Below, piece after piece: positions 12,738 through 24,521 of a stretch of 25,342 nt of DNA (position 1 is the first letter of the stretch; each line of letters opens with the position of its first letter). Below the pieces are notes generated by a model. That model did not search any database and was not told the DNA's origin. It saw nothing but the letters and a program-made list of their open reading frames with translations. Position numbers and translations under genes: made by a program. The stretch comes from a virus. Location: positions 1-25,342 of IMG/VR virus record IMGVR_UViG_3300007276_000274; one strand, written 5' to 3'.

Positions 12738-13370
12738 GTACCATTAAATTTGATGATACAAGGCGGCTTAGGCATCGCCAGCGGTATAATAGGTAGCAAG
12801 CGTAGAAGAGAAGAACAAGCGCAAGCGCAGATAGAGTTTGATAGAAACATGGCACAGTACCGTAACCAAGACTTGTCAAACCCGTATATGAACATGGAAA
12901 ACACCATGGAAGACCTTACGGTTAATACACAGGCTGCTGATTTTACAGCTGCTCAGCAGCAGCAAGGAATGGCAAACACTATGAGTGCGTTAAGAGGTGC
13001 CGCGGGTGGTTCAGGTATTGCTGCTTTAGCACAGTCTTTAGCGAGTCAACAATCTGCTAATGCTCAATCGGCTTCAGCAAGTATAGCACAACAAGAAGCT
13101 TCAAATCAAGCGGCAGAGCGCAGAATGGCGGGTCAACTGCAATCTTTGGAGCGTCAAGGTGATGTGATGTCTAGAAGCATGAAACGTGAACAATTTAGCA
13201 CTGAACTGGGTATGTCACAAAATAGATTAGCCTCAGCAAACTTAGCACGACAACAAGCTACTCAAGCAATGCTCGGGGGTATTGGTAATGCCATTTCTGG
13301 TGGTATTAACGCTCAAACCGCTTTGCAGGGCACAAACGATCCTCTTAATGCTTTAACGGGTAGAATATAA
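12735..13370 (+). CDS. Putative internal virion (ejection) protein, small Ala/Gln-rich
   Basis: This 211-residue protein has a short hydrophobic Gly-rich N-terminus (LMIQGGLGIASGIIGSKRRR, residues 6-25) followed by a basic patch, then long Ala/Gln/Ser helices with a Gly-rich break (MSALRGAAGGSGIAALAQSL, about 82-101). The C-terminus returns to glycine-rich hydrophobic sequence (MLGGIGNAISGGINAQTALQ). The plan of membrane-seeking N-terminus plus coiled-coil body is that of T7 gp14-like ejection proteins, and similar sequences recur in marine phages. Such proteins leave the capsid with the DNA and help form the channel across the cell envelope. It lies between the nozzle gene and the other two large internal-type proteins and overlaps the next gene (TAATG), so the three are probably translated as a set. 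Function is inferred from architecture and place. Confidence 0.66.
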   Translation: MVPLNLMIQGGLGIASGIIGSKRRREEQAQAQIEFDRNMAQYRNQDLSNPYMNMENTMEDLTVNTQAADFTAAQQQQGMANTMSALRGAAGGSGIAALAQSLASQQSANAQSASASIAQQEASNQAAERRMAGQLQSLERQGDVMSRSMKREQFSTELGMSQNRLASANLARQQATQAMLGGIGNAISGGINAQTALQGTNDPLNALTGRI

Positions 13371-14689
13371 TGGCTGATAAAAGTTTAGTAAAAGGAGCAG
13401 CAGTTTTAGGGTCAACCACGGGGTTTACAGATTATTCCAAACAATTTAAAGGTAGCGATGCTGCAACACAAGCGCGTTTAGGGCTTGCTGTAAAGCAAAA
13501 ACAAGAAGCTGAGGTCGCTAGAGTAACTGGAGAAATAAACTCCTATATGGGCCAATTAAAAAGCGATATTTCTTTTAGAGATTTAGATGCTGGCTCACAG
13601 AATACAATGAAAAGCTGGTTGGGTAGCAAAAGAAATGAATATGCCTATGCAGCTAACCAAATATCTAAAATACAGGACGCATCGTCACCTGAATACCAGC
13701 AGTATGCTGATATAATGAACCAAATAAATAATGACATATCTAATCTTTCAGATCAAGTAAAAGCTTACAAAGAGAATAAGCTTGCATTTGTAGATATGAA
13801 TGAAAAAGACATGTGGTCCGCGGGAAATAACCCGGAAAGTAACCAACAAGCACAGCTTATTTACGGACTTGGCGACTTCACTCCACCTATGCAGATTAAT
13901 AGCAACGGTGATTTAGCCTTTAATGTTAACGGTAATAATATACGTTTTAACGATTACAAATCTCCCTTTTTAAAAGACTATAAAGCCGCTACGTATATTA
14001 CAACGCAAGCAAATACAATATATAACTCCGGAGTTAAGTTAAATGACGCTAAAAGAAATACTATTCGTTTAGGTCTTGAGCAGCAGTTAGCAGATTCTAA
14101 TTCCTTAAGAAGCATTATTAGTAACGACTTTACTGTTGATGGTTTAGACTTTAGTAATATAGTTTTTAATCCAGAAGATATTGCTGGTACTAGAAAACAA
14201 GTTATTGATACTATTCTTAATGGTTTTGATTCTGTAGCAAACGCTGGTTATAGTGAAAAGCAAAACAAAGGAAAAGACTCAAGTGTAAACCCTGGTAATG
14301 TCGTTAAAAATGCAGATGGCACTCAAACATATGTTTCACCAGATAAGACAGGGCCGCTAGCAGGCGATGTTGATAGCTATATCGATACTAAGGAAGGTGA
14401 TTATGCAATGCGTATTGACCAGTCAACAGACTACGCTATAAATAATATGGAGGAAGCAACTATAACAGTCAAAGGGCCCGATGGCAAAGATGTTGAACGA
14501 AAAGTTAAGCGGGGTATTGGTATGCCTTTTAAAATAAAAGGAATGGAATTTACACCTGTATATCAAGCATTTGAAATACAAGGTAAAGGTGGAACAAATA
14601 AAACTAAAGCGGTTTATATATACCAACAAAATGGAGAAATAAGGGAACTTAGTTACGATGGAATGATGCAATACGCAAAACGAGCATAA
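13370..14689 (+). CDS. Putative internal virion / cargo protein
   Basis: I do not recognise an enzyme family in this 439-residue protein. The first 160 residues are helical, with Gln/Lys-rich stretches (ARLGLAVKQKQEAEVARVTG; SSPEYQQYADIMNQINNDIS) that could form coiled coils. Residues about 170-215 are beta-like (GDLAFNVNGNNIRFNDYKSP). Residues about 295-330 are Gly/Asp/Thr-rich and probably a flexible linker, and the C-terminal 100 residues look beta-rich (EEATITVKGPDGKDVERKVK; KAVYIYQQNGEIREL). No signal peptide or membrane segment is seen. Its start overlaps the stop of the Ala/Gln-rich gene, and it lies six bases upstream of the giant gene. That position matches the middle internal core protein of T7-like ejection sets, which is the basis for calling it cargo. 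Confidence 0.58.
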   Translation: MADKSLVKGAAVLGSTTGFTDYSKQFKGSDAATQARLGLAVKQKQEAEVARVTGEINSYMGQLKSDISFRDLDAGSQNTMKSWLGSKRNEYAYAANQISKIQDASSPEYQQYADIMNQINNDISNLSDQVKAYKENKLAFVDMNEKDMWSAGNNPESNQQAQLIYGLGDFTPPMQINSNGDLAFNVNGNNIRFNDYKSPFLKDYKAATYITTQANTIYNSGVKLNDAKRNTIRLGLEQQLADSNSLRSIISNDFTVDGLDFSNIVFNPEDIAGTRKQVIDTILNGFDSVANAGYSEKQNKGKDSSVNPGNVVKNADGTQTYVSPDKTGPLAGDVDSYIDTKEGDYAMRIDQSTDYAINNMEEATITVKGPDGKDVERKVKRGIGMPFKIKGMEFTPVYQAFEIQGKGGTNKTKAVYIYQQNGEIRELSYDGMMQYAKRA

Positions 14690-14694
14690 TAAAT

Positions 14695-17600
14695 ATGAAT
14701 AATCAAGATTTATTAAATCAAGGGGCATTTTCTTCTTTTACTATAGAAGAATTAGAAGCATTAAAGAAAAAAGCTTTAGAGGGAAAGCAAAACGTTCCGG
14801 AGGGCCAGACTCCACCAACGGGACAGAATCAAGAAGCGGCCGCTGGGGATTCCAGTTTGGCCGATACTTCTTTGGGGTCACCTCTAACTATTGATTACGG
14901 TCCAGATGAGTTCGCTCAACAAACCGGGGTTGTAGCTGAAAAAGATTTTGAAGTCAGTGGTATAAACGAAATGCCTAAATCCTATTTAGTAGAACAAGGT
15001 GATTATGGTACTCGTAATAAAATTGAAAAAGAAAACAGAAAAAAAAGGTTAGAACATAATCAAAAATATAATGTACGTACGGCTGGTTTAACAGGAATAG
15101 GTGAATTTTCAGCTAGTCGTATCCCTGTTTTTGAAGATATTGAGCCTACTAAGCAAGAAAGTTTTAATATTGAAATTGAAGAAAACGATTTAGAGTTAGA
15201 GTCTACAAAATCTAACATGTACTTCAATGGTGATAAAGACAATTCGTTTGTAAACCAATATTACAATGTTACAGACCTAGAAAAAATAGGGGTTGATATA
15301 GATGATTTTCAGGGGTACTTAAATGCAAACCAATTTTCAAAAGACTTTGAGCAAGACTTACTAAGAGGTGTATATACATCGAATAGGATTGATGGTACAA
15401 AACTTGAAAACCAAAAAACATTAAACATAGCTAGAGAAAGAGTTCTTGCTTTACATTTAAATAATTATATAGAAGAAACCAACGAAAAAGCTAATAAAAA
15501 AGCATTTTTAGAAAGCTATAATTTAGATCCAAGCGTTTACGATAGCGAAGCTAATTTTGATGAAGCATATATTAAATATTTAGAAGCTGAAGGTACAAAA
15601 ACATTGTATAATCAAGCTGAGTCTGAAAAATATGTTACTAATAACCTTAATTTTTTAGCAAATAGAGCAAAAGAAATTCAGTTAAAAAGATATAACGAAT
15701 TACAAAAACAATTAGATCAAGGTAATACAGAAGGCGCTTTAGATGCTATTGTAACTGGCAGTGCAAAATTTGTAGATGCTTTTCCAAAAGCGTTTATAGA
15801 TTTAAGCATAATGGCTCAAGATATTATAGGCATGGATGCTACAGCTAAAACTAGAAGAGCTGAATTGTATGAAAAAGAACAATTAGATACAAGAGGATAC
15901 GGTTCTTATGTTTATGCTAGTGGAAAAAGCTTAACTATAAATGGTAAAAAATATTTAAAAGACGAAAAAGGCACTATATACGACGTAGACGCTGGAGTAT
16001 CTATAAATGAAATTATGGATCCTTTTAAACTTAAAGGGATTAGTGATAAAATAGATAGAGAAGGTGTAAAAGATTCAGATATAAGCGCAGCGGGTTTAAC
16101 TATACAAGGTGGTGCTGTTGTAGGTGATGTTATAGCGCAAATGATAGGCACAAAAGGCTTAGGAGCAGCAAGAAAGGCTGCTTCTTTACAATATTTAGCC
16201 AAAGCAAAAGGATTTAAAGATGCTGCTTCAGTAGTTAAATTTAGCAAAATGGGTGCTAAAGGAGGCAAAGGAGCAATGAGTAATATAGGCACTTTTGGTA
16301 AAAAATTACCATTTAACGCGGCTATGTTAGATGCTACTATGTTCCAGTCTTTATACGGAGCTGTTAACGGTTATGAAGGTACTATTAGAGCAGCTAAGCA
16401 AGCGGGTTTTTCTGATGAAGAAGCTCAAAGTTTAGCAAACCAAGCTGCATTGCAAATGTCTATATTATATGCAGCCACAGGGCCTATAAACCCTCGGATA
16501 CCTGGTATGAATAAATTAGATGATCTCATTAGTCAATCTAAAGTATTTAACAAAGCATTAAAAAACTATAGAGCCAGCGGTAATGTTAAAGATTTTTCTA
16601 ATACCATAACAAAGTTTGCAAAAGATGTTGCAAAAGGTACCCCTGCTGCTTTAAAAACAATAGCTTCTGAAGGGGCTAAAGAAACTGTACAAGAAAATAT
16701 ACAACAAGCAGGTGAGCTTTTATTAGTTAATAGAAACTTAAACGAAATTGCGGGAGAAGACTTTTTAAACGCTTCTTATTCTAAAGATGATATTGTAACT
16801 ACATCTATACTTTCTTTTGCTGTAGGTGGTTTAGTAGGCGGAAAACTACCAGGTGTTCAATCTTCAGAATACCAAAGATTACAAAATTTATTTGTTATTA
16901 GTAAGGATTTAGAGGGCGCAAAAAAACGTTTTGATTTCATGATTGACAAAGGTAAAATGTCAGCTGATGAAAGAGACGGTATATTAGAACAAGCGGGAGC
17001 TATTAGTGCACAATCCGATAAAATACCAACTTGGATGTTAGGCCAAAATAATCATCAAGAGTTTATTGATGCCGCTGTAACTTTAAATAAAATAAAAAAG
17101 TTACAAGACCAAAAATCAAAAACAGATAAAGCTTTTCACGAGCCTATAGATTTACAAATTGAAGAAGAACAAAAAAATCTTGAAGGCATAATTAACCAAG
17201 CCTTAGAACAGAAAAAACAAGCTGTAGAAACCGCTGTAAAGAAAGACATAGAAACCGTAGAAAATATTGTAGGTAAAGAAAACGTAACTGTATTCAATAC
17301 CAAAAAAGAAATGGAAGACGCTGGATTTGACGAAGGAGCGTTAACCAGCGACGGTTTTATGGAAACGGACGGTAAAATAATTATTAATTTAGAAGTTGCC
17401 GTTAATACGCAGGCTATTAGTGTAGCTTCTCATGAGTTATTACACCGTGTATTAAGAAGTGAATTAGCCACGTTACCCGAGGGAACTAAAGAAAGAATAA
17501 CTAATGAACTTAGAAACTTATTACCAAAAGAGGCTTTAGAACTAATAGAATCTAAACTAAAAACTGGTATAGAACAAGGTTTTTATGATATAAAATTTGA

Positions 17601-20600
17601 TGAAGACGGTAAAGTATCTGGAAATGATATTGATGAATATATGAATTTTCTTTTTGTTGCTTTAAATGAAAAAGAAGTTATAATAAAAGAAAACGTTTTA
17701 ATTGAATTAGGTAGATGGATTGTTAATCAAATTAGAGCATTTAGAGGAATAGATAAAAAATTTGAAAACGGCCAGCAGGTTCTTGATTTTGTAAAAGACT
17801 ATCAAAAGTCAATTACAAAAGGTAGGCTTAGTGCAGCTGCAAGAATAAAAGCAAAACAGTCAGAGGGAATTAAAGGTTCTAAAACAAAAAAATCTGTTAC
17901 TAATAAAAAACAATTATTTGAAACAATTGAATCTGTAGTACCTAAAAAAGCTAAAACTAAAGCTGAGTTTCAAGCAGATCCCGGGTTTACAGATATATAC
18001 ATGCTTTTACAGCCTGGGCAACCTGTACATAATTTTATAGTAAGTAAGTTCCCAGGACAAACGGAAAAAGTTAGAGGTCTAATAGAGTCTTTGGAAGAGC
18101 GTCTTATTAATTTTGACCCTGAAAAGAAAAGAAAGGGTAGTAACGAAACAATTGGAACCGAGGGGTTCGTGGAGTTTCTTATGGCTAATATTAATTTTGC
18201 CGCGCTTGACATCAATAAAAAATTAGCTAAAGAAGCTGCTAGAGAAAAGCAAACAGGAAGCCTTGACAGCGAAACAGCAAAACAAGTCGCTGATATTTCT
18301 AATGAAATTAAAAAAGAGCTGTCTAAAAGACCTGAATATAGAGATTTGCTTAGAAGAAAGGTAGTAGATGAAGATGTTGTAAAAGATATTGAACAAAAAG
18401 TAATTAGAATAGTTGCTCTTTTAAAATCTCGTATAGACGCTAAAGTAAGCAACAATGTTACCGTCGCGCCTTTAATTAAAGAAATTAAAAACCAAGCTGG
18501 TAAGTCAATAGATATTGATTTTAAAAAGGCTATGGGCGGTAAAAAAGATGGGGAGTTACGTAAATTTTTGTTACGGAATAAGGCTGCTATCTTAGAAAAT
18601 ATGTCAACCACTTGGTTAAGCCAAGCAATACCTAATGCTATTCAAAAAAGTGTTGATGGTGTTTTTACAACCGATTGGAAAGGCAAAAAAATAGATAGGG
18701 AAACAATGGAAACAGATTTAGCTGGACGTACATCTGGTGCGGATTTAGTTAGACGTTTACCAAAAGCTCCTGGCGCTATTTCTGATTCAGACTTTTTGTC
18801 GTTATTCTTAGAGCCCAACGGTAATCCCACAAGAGGTAAAAAAGAATCTTTAGCTAAAGCTATGGCTGAAGAAATAACATTTGATATAATTAAAAAATCT
18901 TTTGACGAAAACGGCCCTATTGCGCAAGCACTTATAGAAAATCAAAAGCGCAACGGTGTTGAAAACGCTGAAAATATGGGTCCTGAATTTAAAAGACAGG
19001 CTGAGCGCGGTAATATTAAATTTTCAATTTCACCACCCGCTGTAAATGTTTTAAATGAAGCAGATATTATGGCTACTCTTCAATTGCTTGATTCTGCAGA
19101 TGGTGATTCAAGAGTATTAAAACAAGAATTAATACAAACTGCTTTAACAAAAATTCTTAAAGACAACGGTTATGGAAATAAATTATTTGATTTAAGTAAT
19201 TCAGAGCAACTAGAAACGTATACGCAGACCATTAAAGAGTTTCTTGTTCCTATTATGGAAAAAGATTTTTGGGGAACAAATGAGGCTACTCATTTGCTGC
19301 ATAGTAAGGAAATAATGTTTGGTGGAAAAACTGATAAAAAATTAGAATTTGAAGCCGCAAGAAGTAAGCTTATTGAAGATATATTTAATGACTCAGACCA
19401 AAAATATGGCAAAAAAATAGCTAAGCCTAAAAAATTTAAAAACCCTAAAACAGGTAGAACTATAGATACCACACCTACTAATGTTTTTCAAAATGAAGAA
19501 ATTGCTCGAGCAGCTTATGAAGCAGGAGCTGTTCTTAGTTATAATGTATGGGCAGAACAAACAGGTAAACAATTATGGTTTGGATTAAAAGACGTACTTC
19601 AACAAAACAAAGATAATCCAAATGTAGCAATAGCTATAGCTACCTGGTTAAGCTCTTCTGCTAGTAATACAAAACACCCTATGAGAGCGTTAGCTAGTAT
19701 GATAGGGTATTCTAAAGGGTTTGACAAAAAAGTTGCACCTATAGAAATAGAGCACGCTTTACCAGCTACTACTATGATACAAACGCTCTTTAATACAGCT
19801 TTACAAAACCCTGAAGATTTTGCAACCAACTATTCATATGTAAGTAAGAATTATGTTCTTATAGGAATGAATAAATCAGATGAACTAAAAACTAAAAAAT
19901 TTGCTAAAAAAAGCATAAAAGAATATAATTTAAGATCTGGTACATGGTGGGATAGATATTTAAATCCTGTAATTGCAAAAGAACAAGGATATTTAAGAGG
20001 CGACGACGGTAAAAAGCAGTTTTTTGATGGTGATTTTGGAATAGATCCAAAATCAATTATATTATTTTCAGGAAAATCCTTATATGAGGTAGCTGGTGTT
20101 AAAAAGAACGGTTCTTTTGAAACTAATATTCAAATAGAAGTACCAACTATAGGTTTAAAAGGCGGTAAACAAAAATATTCTTTACGAGATCTTAAAAAAA
20201 TAGCTGCGAAAGATAAAGTGCGGCAAGATAGATTTGAAAACGGTCAAAGAAAATATTCAGCTAGTTTTGCGCCTCCAGAAGTACTAAATGCTCAATTTAA
20301 CGCAATACTTAGTAGAAAAAGTGGTATTGATGGTGCAACGGAAATATCTAGAGCTAGAGGTCAAATTTTAGGAAGAGGAAAAGGAAGGTTTAAATTCTTT
20401 ATTGCTCCTGGCGCTGATGACTTTAGAGGCTTAGTGCACTACGCTTTTGCAGGAAAGGGTAAGCAAGGGGAAAAAGATATGGAGTTCTTTGAAAAGAATC
20501 TTATGGACCCATACTTTAGAGGTATTGCTGCTATAGACGCTATGCGACAACTTATTAAAAGGGAATTTAAAGTTGTTACTACAGAGTTTAAAGACGAGTA

Positions 20601-22389
20601 TAAAATGCTTAAGGAGCCCGTACCTGGCACACCATTTACTTACGATCAAGCACTTCGCGTATATATGTGGGGCCTCGCAGGTATTGAAGTTCCTGGTTTG
20701 GATAAAAGAGACTTAAACACTTTAGAAAATGCTATTTTAGATAACCCAGCGCTTGCGGATTTTGCTGAAGCATTACTCATTGTTGGCCGTCGTGAAGCAT
20801 GGCCTAAACCCTCTGAGTTTTGGCTTGGTGATTCTGTATTAGCTGATCTTAATAGTATGACTGAAAAAGTTGGTCGTAAAGATATACTTGCTCAGTTTAT
20901 TACAAACGTAGATGCAATGTTTGATGAAGCTACACTTAATAAGATTGAAGCTATTAAAGGTAGAAAACATCGTGAAGCCCTTGAAGATTCAATATATGCT
21001 ATGAAAAACGGTAGTAACCGTCCTTCAGGTGCTAATATGCAAACTAACAAATGGCTTAACTGGATTAATGGTTCTACGGCATCAATCATGTTCTTCAACC
21101 GTCGTTCTGCATTATTACAGATGTTATCGTTCACTAACTTTATAAATTGGTCAGATAACAACCCTATAAAAGCAGCAGCAGCATTTGCAAATCAAACACA
21201 GTATTGGAAAGACTTTGTATTCTTATTTAATTCTGATAAGTTAAAAGAACGTCGCGGCGGTTTGAAACAAGATATTAGTGAATCTGAAATTGCTCAAGTA
21301 GCGGGCAAATCTAAAAACAGTCCGCAAGCGGTTCTTGCTCGTATACTTAAAGCTGGATTTTTACCTACACAAATTGCTGATAGTTTTGCTATTGCTACCG
21401 GTGGCGCTACTTTTTATCGTAATCGTGTAAATACATATTTAAAGCAGGGAATGTCGCAAAAGAAAGCTGAAGAAAAAGCATTTGAAGATTTTTCTAAAGC
21501 ATCGGACGTTGCACAGCAGTCTTCTGACCCAGCATTGGTATCACAAGAGCAAAGATCAATTTTAGGGCGTCTTATACTAGCTTTTGCTAATACCCCTATG
21601 CAATACACTCGTTTAATGAAAAAAGCTGGCCAGGACCTTATAAATGGCCGCGGGGATGCTAAGGCACATATAAGTAAGATTCTTTATTACGGAGCAGTAC
21701 AAAACTTTATATTCTCAGCGCTGCAGAGTGCTTTATTTGCATTATTCTTTGACGACGACGAAGAAGACGATGAAAAACGCAAACAAAATGCGGATAAAAA
21801 ATTGTTAAGAACAGTTAATAGCATGGTAGATACTATTCTTCGCGGTTCAGGTATTTACGGCGCGGTTGTTTCTACCATAAAAAACACCATACAAACTTAT
21901 TATGCTCAGGAAGCTAAAGAGTTTATGGCAGATCATACTTATACTGTATTATCAGCTTTAAATATATCTCCGCCTATTGGCTCTAAGTTTAGAAAACTAT
22001 ACGCTGCAATTCAAACAAGAAAATTTGAAAAAGACGCTATTGCTGCAAGAGGCTGGGCGTTAACAGCTAATGGTAAACTTAATTTAGGTCCTAATTGGGC
22101 AATTTTAGGTGCTTTAACTTCCGGTGTGGCTAATGTACCTATAGATCGTATTGAAGCTGAAATTAGCTCTATAGCGGAGGCGCTTGACGCTCGTAATAAA
22201 GCATGGCAACGTATAGCATTAGCTCTTGGGTGGAAAACTTGGGATGTAGGTGCTAAAAACGAAGAAGAAGATTTAATTGAAACCTTAGCTAAAGAAAAGC
22301 GTAAAGAAGAAGGTAAAAAGAAAGCTGCTGAAACACGCCGTAAAAAGCAAAAATCAAAATTTAGTATAGACAAAAGAATTACAGAGTAA
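14695..22389 (+). CDS. Giant multidomain internal virion protein with HELLH metallopeptidase-like motif
   Basis: This 2564-residue protein is probably packaged and ejected with the genome. In order: residues 1-80, a disordered Gly/Pro/Gln linker; scattered hydrophobic Gly/Ala segments near 465-500, 583-600 and 703-717; a charged coiled-coil region near 810-880; H913-E914-L915-L916-H917 in SVASHELLHRVL, the zinc-site pattern of HExxH peptidases, with no clear third ligand; a conserved-looking block near 1095-1165 (MLLQPGQPVHNFIV; LEERLINFDPEKKRK); a possible His-Me-finger-like stretch, 1683-1727; and from about 1895 on, a module I recall widely from marine phages (APGADDFRGLVHYAFAGKGK; NRRSALLQ at 2135; TQIADSFAIATGGATFYRNR). 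A membrane-like helix (2332-2352) is followed by an acidic run and, at the end, a Lys-rich tail. K-[FY]-S occurs at 1442, 1827, 1853 and 2555. No phage RNA polymerase catalytic motif was seen. Confidence 0.72.
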   Translation: MNNQDLLNQGAFSSFTIEELEALKKKALEGKQNVPEGQTPPTGQNQEAAAGDSSLADTSLGSPLTIDYGPDEFAQQTGVVAEKDFEVSGINEMPKSYLVEQGDYGTRNKIEKENRKKRLEHNQKYNVRTAGLTGIGEFSASRIPVFEDIEPTKQESFNIEIEENDLELESTKSNMYFNGDKDNSFVNQYYNVTDLEKIGVDIDDFQGYLNANQFSKDFEQDLLRGVYTSNRIDGTKLENQKTLNIARERVLALHLNNYIEETNEKANKKAFLESYNLDPSVYDSEANFDEAYIKYLEAEGTKTLYNQAESEKYVTNNLNFLANRAKEIQLKRYNELQKQLDQGNTEGALDAIVTGSAKFVDAFPKAFIDLSIMAQDIIGMDATAKTRRAELYEKEQLDTRGYGSYVYASGKSLTINGKKYLKDEKGTIYDVDAGVSINEIMDPFKLKGISDKIDREGVKDSDISAAGLTIQGGAVVGDVIAQMIGTKGLGAARKAASLQYLAKAKGFKDAASVVKFSKMGAKGGKGAMSNIGTFGKKLPFNAAMLDATMFQSLYGAVNGYEGTIRAAKQAGFSDEEAQSLANQAALQMSILYAATGPINPRIPGMNKLDDLISQSKVFNKALKNYRASGNVKDFSNTITKFAKDVAKGTPAALKTIASEGAKETVQENIQQAGELLLVNRNLNEIAGEDFLNASYSKDDIVTTSILSFAVGGLVGGKLPGVQSSEYQRLQNLFVISKDLEGAKKRFDFMIDKGKMSADERDGILEQAGAISAQSDKIPTWMLGQNNHQEFIDAAVTLNKIKKLQDQKSKTDKAFHEPIDLQIEEEQKNLEGIINQALEQKKQAVETAVKKDIETVENIVGKENVTVFNTKKEMEDAGFDEGALTSDGFMETDGKIIINLEVAVNTQAISVASHELLHRVLRSELATLPEGTKERITNELRNLLPKEALELIESKLKTGIEQGFYDIKFDEDGKVSGNDIDEYMNFLFVALNEKEVIIKENVLIELGRWIVNQIRAFRGIDKKFENGQQVLDFVKDYQKSITKGRLSAAARIKAKQSEGIKGSKTKKSVTNKKQLFETIESVVPKKAKTKAEFQADPGFTDIYMLLQPGQPVHNFIVSKFPGQTEKVRGLIESLEERLINFDPEKKRKGSNETIGTEGFVEFLMANINFAALDINKKLAKEAAREKQTGSLDSETAKQVADISNEIKKELSKRPEYRDLLRRKVVDEDVVKDIEQKVIRIVALLKSRIDAKVSNNVTVAPLIKEIKNQAGKSIDIDFKKAMGGKKDGELRKFLLRNKAAILENMSTTWLSQAIPNAIQKSVDGVFTTDWKGKKIDRETMETDLAGRTSGADLVRRLPKAPGAISDSDFLSLFLEPNGNPTRGKKESLAKAMAEEITFDIIKKSFDENGPIAQALIENQKRNGVENAENMGPEFKRQAERGNIKFSISPPAVNVLNEADIMATLQLLDSADGDSRVLKQELIQTALTKILKDNGYGNKLFDLSNSEQLETYTQTIKEFLVPIMEKDFWGTNEATHLLHSKEIMFGGKTDKKLEFEAARSKLIEDIFNDSDQKYGKKIAKPKKFKNPKTGRTIDTTPTNVFQNEEIARAAYEAGAVLSYNVWAEQTGKQLWFGLKDVLQQNKDNPNVAIAIATWLSSSASNTKHPMRALASMIGYSKGFDKKVAPIEIEHALPATTMIQTLFNTALQNPEDFATNYSYVSKNYVLIGMNKSDELKTKKFAKKSIKEYNLRSGTWWDRYLNPVIAKEQGYLRGDDGKKQFFDGDFGIDPKSIILFSGKSLYEVAGVKKNGSFETNIQIEVPTIGLKGGKQKYSLRDLKKIAAKDKVRQDRFENGQRKYSASFAPPEVLNAQFNAILSRKSGIDGATEISRARGQILGRGKGRFKFFIAPGADDFRGLVHYAFAGKGKQGEKDMEFFEKNLMDPYFRGIAAIDAMRQLIKREFKVVTTEFKDEYKMLKEPVPGTPFTYDQALRVYMWGLAGIEVPGLDKRDLNTLENAILDNPALADFAEALLIVGRREAWPKPSEFWLGDSVLADLNSMTEKVGRKDILAQFITNVDAMFDEATLNKIEAIKGRKHREALEDSIYAMKNGSNRPSGANMQTNKWLNWINGSTASIMFFNRRSALLQMLSFTNFINWSDNNPIKAAAAFANQTQYWKDFVFLFNSDKLKERRGGLKQDISESEIAQVAGKSKNSPQAVLARILKAGFLPTQIADSFAIATGGATFYRNRVNTYLKQGMSQKKAEEKAFEDFSKASDVAQQSSDPALVSQEQRSILGRLILAFANTPMQYTRLMKKAGQDLINGRGDAKAHISKILYYGAVQNFIFSALQSALFALFFDDDEEDDEKRKQNADKKLLRTVNSMVDTILRGSGIYGAVVSTIKNTIQTYYAQEAKEFMADHTYTVLSALNISPPIGSKFRKLYAAIQTRKFEKDAIAARGWALTANGKLNLGPNWAILGALTSGVANVPIDRIEAEISSIAEALDARNKAWQRIALALGWKTWDVGAKNEEEDLIETLAKEKRKEEGKKKAAETRRKKQKSKFSIDKRITE

Positions 22390-22862
22390 TGAAATTAGAA
22401 GTATTAAGAATTAGCAGTCAAGAAGACTCAACCAATGGAATATTATTTGACATTACAGACGGCAAGCGAGAGTTCTTATGTTACACGCTTGAAGACGAAC
22501 ACAGAGACATTAAAAAATATGGTGAAACCAGAGTGCCTGCTGGAACATATAACATTACTCTCCGGACGGTGGGAGGATTTCATGGTAGATATTTAAAGAA
22601 ATATGGGGAGATGCACAAAGGAATGCTATGGGTACGTGAGGTTCCTAATTTTGAGTATATCCTTATTCACACTGGTAATACCGATGAACACACTGCTGGG
22701 TGTTTACTTCTTGGTGATACTCAACAAACAAATTTTGAATGGAGTGATGGATTCGTTGGGCGCTCTGTTATTGCATATAAAAGAGTTTACCCGAAAATCG
22801 CGAAGGCATTAACTAATAATGAACAAGTTACAATTACATATACAGATTTTGACGTAATATAA
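22389..22862 (+). CDS. DUF5675-like protein, possible cell-wall-acting or lysis protein
   Basis: This 157-residue protein has the features I recall for the DUF5675 family: RVPAGTYNITLRTVGGFHGR in the middle, GMLWVREVPNFEYILIH, and the core IHTGNTDEHTAGCLLLGD with H94 and C105. A His-Gly...Gly-Cys arrangement on a beta-rich scaffold loosely recalls L,D-transpeptidase active sites, though the spacing and the usual Ser-His-Gly-Cys motif differ, so catalysis is unproven. DUF5675 genes are common in tailed phages, often near lysis or tail genes. It starts inside the stop of the giant gene (TAATG) and is followed eight bases later by a small single-span membrane protein, an arrangement seen in lysis cassettes. 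No signal peptide is present. The family call is fairly secure; the biochemical role is open. Confidence 0.75.
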   Translation: MKLEVLRISSQEDSTNGILFDITDGKREFLCYTLEDEHRDIKKYGETRVPAGTYNITLRTVGGFHGRYLKKYGEMHKGMLWVREVPNFEYILIHTGNTDEHTAGCLLLGDTQQTNFEWSDGFVGRSVIAYKRVYPKIAKALTNNEQVTITYTDFDVI

Positions 22863-24095: not shown

Positions 24096-24243
24096 AGGCT
24101 GTGGACCAAGAAGGCTCGGTAGTCCTTTAAAACTTAAAGACGCTTGCTATCATAAAGTAAAAGCCCAGTACGACGTATTCCCTTCGGCATACGCGTCTGG
24201 CGCTATTGCTAAGTGTCGTAAAAACAAAGGAAAGAAAAAGTAA
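24085..24243 (+). CDS. Small basic Cys-containing protein with SAYASGAIAKCRK motif
   Basis: The 52-residue frame begins at ATGGCAAGT, overlapping the last 11 bases of the basic-protein gene, and ends in TAATG shared with the next start. It carries GCGPRRLGSPLKLKD at residues 5-19 and KVKAQYDVFPSAYASGAIAK with CRKNKGKKK after it (residues 24-52). The pattern K-V-K-x-x-Y-x-V-x-P-S-A-Y-A-S-G-x-x-x-K-C-R is one I have met in short phage and giant-virus proteins, often in virion-associated contexts, with no known function. Cysteines at 6, 21 and 44 are too scattered for a clear zinc site. LGSPLK matches the Ser-Pro motif of its two neighbours. The strong motif and tight coupling make this a real gene despite its size. 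Confidence 0.75.
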   Translation: MASKGCGPRRLGSPLKLKDACYHKVKAQYDVFPSAYASGAIAKCRKNKGKKK

Positions 24244-24521
24244 TGTACAAGCAGCTAAACTCACCTTTTAAAGTTAGAAAAACTAAAGAAGGCTTAGCTC
24301 TTAAACGTTGGTTTAAAGAAGATTGGAGAACACCTAGCGGTAGCAAAGATTACAGTGATGGTGATGTCGTCTTTAGACCTACAAAAAAAGTTAGCAAAGA
24401 CACTCCTAAAACATATAGTGAACTAAGTCCCTCAGACATAGCTGCTGGTAGAAAGGAAAGAAAAGCTAAAGGTAGGGTATCTAAATACGATAGATCAGAA
24501 CTTAAAAAGAATAAAAAATAA
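24243..24521 (+). CDS. Small basic phage protein (DUF5872-like family)
   Basis: This 92-residue protein starts MYKQLNSPFKVRK, echoing the 351-residue protein upstream. The body, ALKRWFKEDWRTPSG, DYSDGDVVFRPTKKVSKDTP and KTYSELSPSDIAAGRKERKA, fits a family of short basic proteins found in marine phages and large DNA viruses that I connect with DUF5872; that name is from memory. Lys and Arg dominate, and the C-terminus (YDRSELKKNKK) is probably disordered. No enzyme motif is seen. Its start overlaps the preceding stop, and its own stop overlaps the next start (TAATG on both sides), so it belongs to a coupled run. A role as a packaged DNA-binding or virion accessory protein is plausible but unproven. 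Confidence 0.7.
   Translation: MYKQLNSPFKVRKTKEGLALKRWFKEDWRTPSGSKDYSDGDVVFRPTKKVSKDTPKTYSELSPSDIAAGRKERKAKGRVSKYDRSELKKNKK

What the first reader, a model, noticed from the sequence alone, without database searches (positions are those of the whole stretch)
14695..22389. 2564-residue modular virion protein with a peptidase-like motif and a membrane-seeking C-terminal module
One polypeptide joins a linker, several Gly/Ala hydrophobic segments, HELLH (913-917), coiled coils, a conserved marine-phage module (about 1895-2350) with a membrane-like helix, and a Lys-rich tail. If ejected, it could digest peptidoglycan crosslinks or host protein and line a channel. No third zinc ligand is obvious, so activity is uncertain.
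Basis: partly seen in the sequence, partly recalled or inferred. Interest (0 to 1): 0.6.

Follow-up and report, generated by a model that had tools for sequence, protein, structure and literature searches.

The report
Phage polyprotein with a zincin-like peptidase
A marine virus of Bacteroidota-type bacteria makes one giant protein, probably injected into the host at infection, that carries a genuine-looking zinc-peptidase domain, a probable transcription-factor-like domain and other modules separated by the same short tag, which suggests that it may cut itself into working pieces.

Summary
The ORF is real (2564 aa, 14695-22389) and HELLH is at 913-917. In 142 homologues HExxH is followed by an invariant Glu (E981 here). 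Across 88 aligned diverse homologues the only invariant columns are H913, E914, H917 and E981. AlphaFold predicts a confident domain (pLDDT 91) with the three-strand, two-helix layout described for zincin peptidases of phage 'polyvalent proteins'.

The protein is the last and largest of three genes after the muzzle gene in a marine, crAss-related podovirus, the slot of the ejected giants of N4 and T7. Architecture across about 150 relatives: N-terminal part, zincin, often a sigma-70-region-2-like domain, swappable cassette(s), and a universal all-helical C-terminal module.

A new observation is a pentamer, K[FYLKR]S.[ST]. It occurs three times in this protein, exactly at the three domain junctions. 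In the family it is about 15-fold denser between the zincin and the C-terminal module than inside domains; a weaker enrichment held in an independent set.

Best reading: an ejected polyvalent protein whose zincin cuts these linkers. Cleavage is inferred, not shown. Peptidoglycan digestion is unsupported; the 'membrane' helix is marginal. Filed as a new variant of a known kind.

The parts
14695..22389 (+). ORF of the 2564-residue giant protein
   Evidence: same slot after muzzle and two smaller genes in L002-L005, L007 and in isolate phages
14695..16059 (+). N-terminal region (residues 1-455), variable; detected in only 17 relatives
16057..16854 (+). Gly/Ala-rich hydrophobic region (residues 455-720), detected in 16 relatives
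17116..17862 (+). zincin-like metallopeptidase domain (residues 808-1056)
   Evidence: 88-sequence alignment, AF2 pLDDT 91 / pTM 0.85; homologous to Elemovirus gp90
17431..17445 (+). HELLH, residues 913-917: two predicted zinc ligands and the general base
   Evidence: invariant columns
17635..17637 (+). E981, predicted third zinc ligand, 68 residues after H913
   Evidence: invariant in 142/142 and in the 88-sequence alignment
17887..17901 (+). linker motif 1, KKSVT (1065-1069), zincin/sigma-like junction
17953..19014 (+). middle domain (1087-1440); its first ~100 residues resemble sigma-70 region 2 (FDP motif at 1140)
   Evidence: 62 relatives; profile matches to solved sigma factors, negative control on the upstream part
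19018..19032 (+). linker motif 2, KFSIS (1442-1446)
19033..20244 (+). swappable cassette (1447-1850), conserved H1661, E1686, H1687, Y1720, R1754; function unknown
   Evidence: 19 relatives
20251..20265 (+). linker motif 3, KYSAS (1853-1857)
20266..22269 (+). universal C-terminal all-alpha module (1858-2525)
   Evidence: 136 relatives; AF2 pLDDT 88.7 / pTM 0.85; no solved relative
21694..21750 (+). most hydrophobic segment (2334-2352), Kyte-Doolittle 1.54, followed by an acidic run
22282..22386 (+). Lys/Arg-rich tail (2530-2564), 15 of 35 residues
12735..13370 (+). 211-aa upstream neighbour with an N-terminal hydrophobic segment, probable small ejection protein
   Evidence: role by gene order only
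13370..14689 (+). 439-aa upstream neighbour, probable second ejection protein
   Evidence: role by gene order only

Best explanation
This is an internal virion protein of the polyvalent type, carried in the particle of a crAss-related marine podovirus and injected with the DNA. Its zincin-like domain (H913/E914/H917 + E981) is a working zinc endopeptidase. It cuts the polypeptide at the K[FYLKR]S.[ST] linkers (1065, 1442, 1853), during maturation or after ejection, and so releases separate pieces: an N-terminal part with the peptidase, a sigma-like domain that could steer host RNA polymerase, a variable effector cassette, and the C-terminal module, which as the universal part probably serves packaging or ejection. 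Shown here: the ORF, the conserved active site, the confident fold, the modular swapping, and the junction motif and its enrichment. Inferred: zinc binding and catalysis, presence in virions, ejection, cleavage at the motif, and every function of the released pieces.
For: Only four invariant columns in 88 diverse homologues, and they are exactly HExxH plus E981, at 16% mean column identity. HExxH to Glu spacing varies from 52 to 109 while the Glu is kept in 142/142. The AF2 model has three strands, the HExxH helix and a helix starting at E981, which is the layout given for polyvalent-protein zincins (PMC5512222). The domain is homologous to one in gp90 of a cultured Flavobacterium phage, in the same gene slot (hhalign 94%, E 1.2e-7). 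Weak fold matches include large polyvalent proteins. Order of domains is fixed while cassettes swap. Three linker motifs lie in this protein, all at junctions; 3 or more occur in 1.7% of shuffles. Density is 1.84 per 1000 aa between zincin and C-terminal module, against 0.12 in domain cores, 0.17 in the N-terminal part and 0.16 in other long ORFs of the same loci. In an independent set it is 0.69 against 0.09-0.22, with 9/49 at the module's start against 0.9 expected. The large-protein slot follows two smaller genes after the muzzle, as in N4.
Against: No cleavage, virion or activity data exist for this protein or its close relatives. N4 vRNAP, which also has an HExxH domain, is reported to be packaged unprocessed (PMC5512222). 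Elemovirus gp90 has the zincin but essentially no linker motif. Nine of 100 module-bearing giants in the second set lack the zincin, and three of them still have KFSKA or KYSKV at the C-terminal module's start, so motif and peptidase are not strictly coupled. About 44 of 149 giants have no strict motif. No solved structure matched the zincin model. Domain borders were first drawn after I had seen the motif, so junction counts are partly circular; the density test and the independent set are less affected.
Confidence: 0.5

Rival explanations
1. Same ejected polyvalent protein, but the zincin is an effector that cuts host proteins (for example defence or regulatory proteins). The K[FYLKR]S.[ST] segments are flexible joints or recombination borders between cassettes, not cleavage sites.
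For: Published as an alternative for polyvalent zincins. Some zincin-less giants keep a related motif and some zincin-bearing ones lack it. Cassettes are swapped between motifs.
Against: A mere flexible joint would not need a conserved K-aromatic/basic-S-x-S/T pattern at three non-homologous junctions.
Confidence: 0.25
2. The zincin is structural or only needed for packaging and keeps its active-site residues for folding; the protein works as one intact chain, as in N4, where a C-terminal region with an HExxH domain is linked to a large helical domain that regulates the enzyme.
For: N4 vRNAP is packaged whole although it carries HExxH, and its C-terminal part is an HExxH domain followed by a large helical domain without homologues (PMC12633501), which resembles the present layout.
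Against: Invariance limited to the four catalytic residues at 16% mean identity is what catalysis, rather than folding, would select. No sequence homology to the N4 domains was found.
Confidence: 0.17
3. One reading: the domain digests peptidoglycan cross-links or the C-terminal module lines a membrane channel during ejection.
For: Position in an ejection-protein slot and one fairly hydrophobic helix.
Against: No cell-wall hydrolase or DD-peptidase family matched. The helix scores 1.54 with conserved Gln/Asn, and the module is predicted as a compact all-helical fold. Fold matches to transporters have TM-scores (query-normalised) of 0.13 or less, i.e. chance.
Confidence: 0.06

Closest known systems
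Polyvalent proteins of phages and conjugative elements with zincin-like MPTase domains (Iyer et al. 2017, PMC5512222)
   Same: One long chain joining unrelated domains, a zincin with HExxH plus a helix Glu, predicted delivery at the start of infection, cassette swapping
   Different: No Pfam polyvalent or LPD family reaches its cut-off here. Sigma-like domain is not mentioned in that paper's main text and no linker motif was named in the passages read. The C-terminal module has no described family
Phage N4 virion RNA polymerase gp50 (3500 aa)
   Same: Giant, last of a small-medium-giant gene series; HExxH domain followed by a large helical C-terminal domain
   Different: No detectable sequence homology in either domain. 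No polymerase DxDxD motif in the window protein. N4 gp50 has only two chance-level copies of the linker pattern
Elemovirus gp90 (Flavobacterium phage vB_FspP_elemoA_7-9A, 3694 aa)
   Same: Same gene slot and a homologous zincin domain
   Different: Different C-terminal part, no linker motif series
Crassvirus cargo proteins (gp45-gp50 of phi-crAss001, PMC10172136)
   Same: Genes follow the muzzle gene; the window muzzle matches PF25731; cargo includes very large proteins
   Different: No polymerase motif here, and no peptidase is mentioned in that paper
Syntenic giant of Cellulophaga phage phi38:1, gp101 (Pervagoviridae)
   Same: Same slot, annotated structural protein by similarity to phi18:1 gp101
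   Different: 1691 aa, no HExxH, no linker motif

Membership tests
Zincin-like metallopeptidase (polyvalent-protein MPTase) | HExxH motif in a helix | tested here: met
   HELLH 913-917 in the predicted helix, model positions 104-118
Zincin-like metallopeptidase (polyvalent-protein MPTase) | Glu in a second, later helix as third zinc ligand | tested here: met
[quoted passage not shown]
   Secondary structure order of the AF2 model
Zincin-like metallopeptidase (polyvalent-protein MPTase) | Match to a known zincin family or fold | tested here: inconclusive
   Weak member hits to DUF6782, M78, M90; no PDB match; BFVD best E 0.004; hhalign to Elemovirus gp90 94%
Zincin-like metallopeptidase (polyvalent-protein MPTase) | Zinc binding and proteolysis | not testable with these tools
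   needs biochemistry
Polyvalent protein | Two or more domains of unrelated activity in one polypeptide, with swapping between relatives | tested here: met
   Zincin + sigma-like + H/E-H cassette or HAD-like cassette + C-terminal module; the sigma part is probable, not certain
Polyvalent protein | Delivered into the host at the start of infection | not testable with these tools
   only gene position supports it
Sigma-70 region 2 | Significant profile similarity to sigma factors | tested here: inconclusive
   Selected set E 2.6e-4 with 10 of 11 hits sigma factors; unselected set E about 0.5, 4 of 13; upstream part alone gives none; Pfam Sigma70_r2 only 0.03-0.04
N4-like virion RNA polymerase | RNA polymerase domain | tested here: not met
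   No polymerase family, no DxDxD
Peptidoglycan hydrolase / DD-peptidase | Recognisable cell-wall hydrolase domain | tested here: not met
   No Pfam or PHROG match
Integral membrane channel protein | Clear transmembrane helix | tested here: not met
   Highest hydropathy 1.54

The most novel reading that the evidence does not exclude
A self-processing injected polyprotein system: hundreds of marine phages carry giants in which swappable effector cassettes, including a sigma-like transcription module, are bounded by a common cleavage tag K[FYLKR]S.[ST] recognised by a built-in zincin, so that one packaged chain delivers several separate effectors.
Probability: 0.33. Interest if true: 0.8.

Novelty: new variant of a known kind. 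Interest (0 to 1): 0.58.

Why it matters
Self-processing of injected phage giants by their zincins was proposed in 2017 on domain grounds (PMC5512222), but no recognition site was named in the passages I read. The junction motif gives exact predicted cut sites, so the proposal becomes testable by peptide mapping and point mutants. It also offers a way to find the borders of unknown effector domains in a large, mostly uncultured group of marine phages, and it points to a sigma-like domain that may be delivered from the virion.

Tried and rejected
Pfam, PHROGs and solved-structure searches with the whole protein or single modules gave nothing at family cut-offs. tblastn of the whole protein in 50,697 phage records gave no match. 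Homology of the C-terminal module to the giants of phi38:1, phi19:3, Elemovirus and MW202828, or to N4, was not found. Foldseek of the C-terminal module gave only chance helical matches. A natural split of the giant in L029 looked like support for separate pieces, but it lies inside the middle domain and looks like a sequencing frameshift. The sigma resemblance fails when only the part upstream of FDP is used, so I call it probable, not established. A nuclease (HNH-like) reading of the H/E-H cassette was considered: one member hits Tox-GHH at E 0.06, too weak to claim. A strict link between motif and zincin was tested and not found.

Full report
Observation. The ORF and the HELLH motif are as described. 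The window is a 25,342-base viral record with portal, capsid and muzzle genes; the portal matches phages of Flavobacterium, Cellulophaga, Maribacter and Tenacibaculum, and the muzzle matches the crassvirus muzzle family PF25731. Relatives of the C-terminal module in genome bins are often, not only, labelled as Bacteroidota, which agrees with a Bacteroidota host.

Family. Whole-protein tblastn found nothing in isolate phages, but six viral loci and then hundreds encode relatives. I collected 149 distinct giants. The domain order is fixed: an N-terminal part, zincin, often a middle domain, a variable cassette, and a C-terminal module that is always last. Cassettes differ even between close relatives: L005 has a divergent version of the 1447-1850 cassette, and L006 and L007 carry a HAD-like FDFD[DE]TL segment there; 27 giants match the HAD-like pattern.

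Zincin. Across 88 diverse sequences with 16% mean column identity, only H913, E914, H917 and E981 are invariant. E981 is kept in all 142 giants aligned, although its distance from HExxH ranges from 52 to 109. Caveat: about half of these loci were found with a pattern containing HExxH, so HExxH frequency is inflated there, but the Glu was not selected for. In an independent set found by the C-terminal module alone, 49 of 54 intact giants have HExxH; the others have no detectable zincin at all rather than a decayed one. AlphaFold gives pLDDT 91 and pTM 0.85, with the strand and helix order expected of these zincins (definition in PMC5512222). No solved structure matched, and the best viral models are weak, including large polyvalent proteins. 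Profile comparison finds the same domain in gp90 of Elemovirus, a cultured Flavobacterium phage, in the same gene slot.

Linker motif. K[FYLKR]S.[ST] occurs three times in the window protein, at 1065, 1442 and 1853, which are the three junctions; shuffled copies average 0.53. Across the first set it is found at the end of the zincin (36/141 against 3.8 expected), the end of the middle domain (38/62 against 1.4) and the start of the C-terminal module (54/136 against 3.7). Its density is 1.84 per 1000 residues between zincin and C-terminal module, against 0.12 in domain cores and 0.16 in other long ORFs of the same loci. The junctions at the middle domain and C-terminal module are each conserved by descent, so counts are not independent events, and I drew the first borders after seeing the motif. 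Two facts reduce this worry: the three junctions are not homologous to one another, and the pattern, fixed beforehand, held in a second set from more divergent relatives, more weakly (0.69 against 0.09-0.22; 9/49 against 0.9). Coupling to the zincin is loose: zincin-less giants have no strict motif between domains apart from one hit at residue 560 of L207, but three keep KFSKA or KYSKV at the module's start, and Elemovirus has a zincin without the motif series.

Sigma-like domain. The first hundred residues of the middle domain contain a pattern like (F/Y)(D/N)P..(N/G)..L..Y(I)N......R. A profile of 33 sequences chosen with an FDP-type pattern matches solved sigma factors (best E 2.6e-4; 10 of the 11 hits are sigma factors). 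An unselected profile of 42 gives four sigma factors among 13 hits at E about 0.5. The part upstream of FDP alone gives none. I therefore call it probable. The window's own copy is one of the most divergent.

C-terminal module. 136 relatives, many invariant residues, confident all-helical prediction, no solved relative. The most hydrophobic stretch, 2334-2352, scores 1.54. It is universal in the family as collected, so packaging or ejection is a reasonable but untested role.

Mechanism. The series 211 aa, 439 aa, 2564 aa after the muzzle resembles the small-medium-giant order of N4 gp52, gp51, gp50 and, from general knowledge, T7 gp14, gp15, gp16. N4 gp50 too has an HExxH domain followed by a large helical domain (PMC12633501), but no sequence homology was found, and N4 gp50 is reported to be packaged whole. 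I therefore commit to an ejected polyvalent protein with an active zincin, most likely processing the chain at the linkers, at 0.5; a host-directed peptidase at 0.25; an intact-chain, non-cleaving role at 0.17; and cell-wall digestion or channel lining at 0.06.

Novelty. Zincin-bearing polyvalent proteins and their possible self-processing are published (PMC5512222). New here are the family, the invariant third-ligand candidate, the junction motif and the probable sigma-like cassette; the paper's main text does not mention sigma, and my literature searches found no description of the motif, though they were limited.

Noticed in passing
window 22389-22862: Gene directly after the giant encodes a DUF5675 / phrog_1501 protein of unknown function, also adjacent in L002 and L005.
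   Followed up: no
window 24243-24521: 92-aa protein matching DUF5872.
   Followed up: no
window 19651-19755 (residues 1653-1687) and L005, L007: Cassette with conserved H...R...EHA.PA, NY and W.RY.N motifs; enzyme-like conservation but no family. Two divergent versions occupy the same place in L002 and L005.
   Followed up: partly
L005 residue 187 and window nt 21940: An N-terminal insertion in L005 repeats ADHTYTVLSA, with 17 identical bases to the C-terminal module of the window protein; L002 lacks it. Possible recombination or assembly scar.
   Followed up: partly
window about 14836-14880 (residues about 48-62): AAGDSSLADTSL near the N-terminus is nearly identical in four relatives whose surroundings differ; might be a packaging or portal-binding signal.
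   Followed up: no
L029:4290-12322: The giant is split in two ORFs inside the middle domain, probably a sequencing frameshift.
   Followed up: partly
L007:2783-12247, L006: HAD-like FDFD[DE]TL cassette before the C-terminal module; 27 giants match the pattern, usually 161-165 residues before the module.
   Followed up: partly
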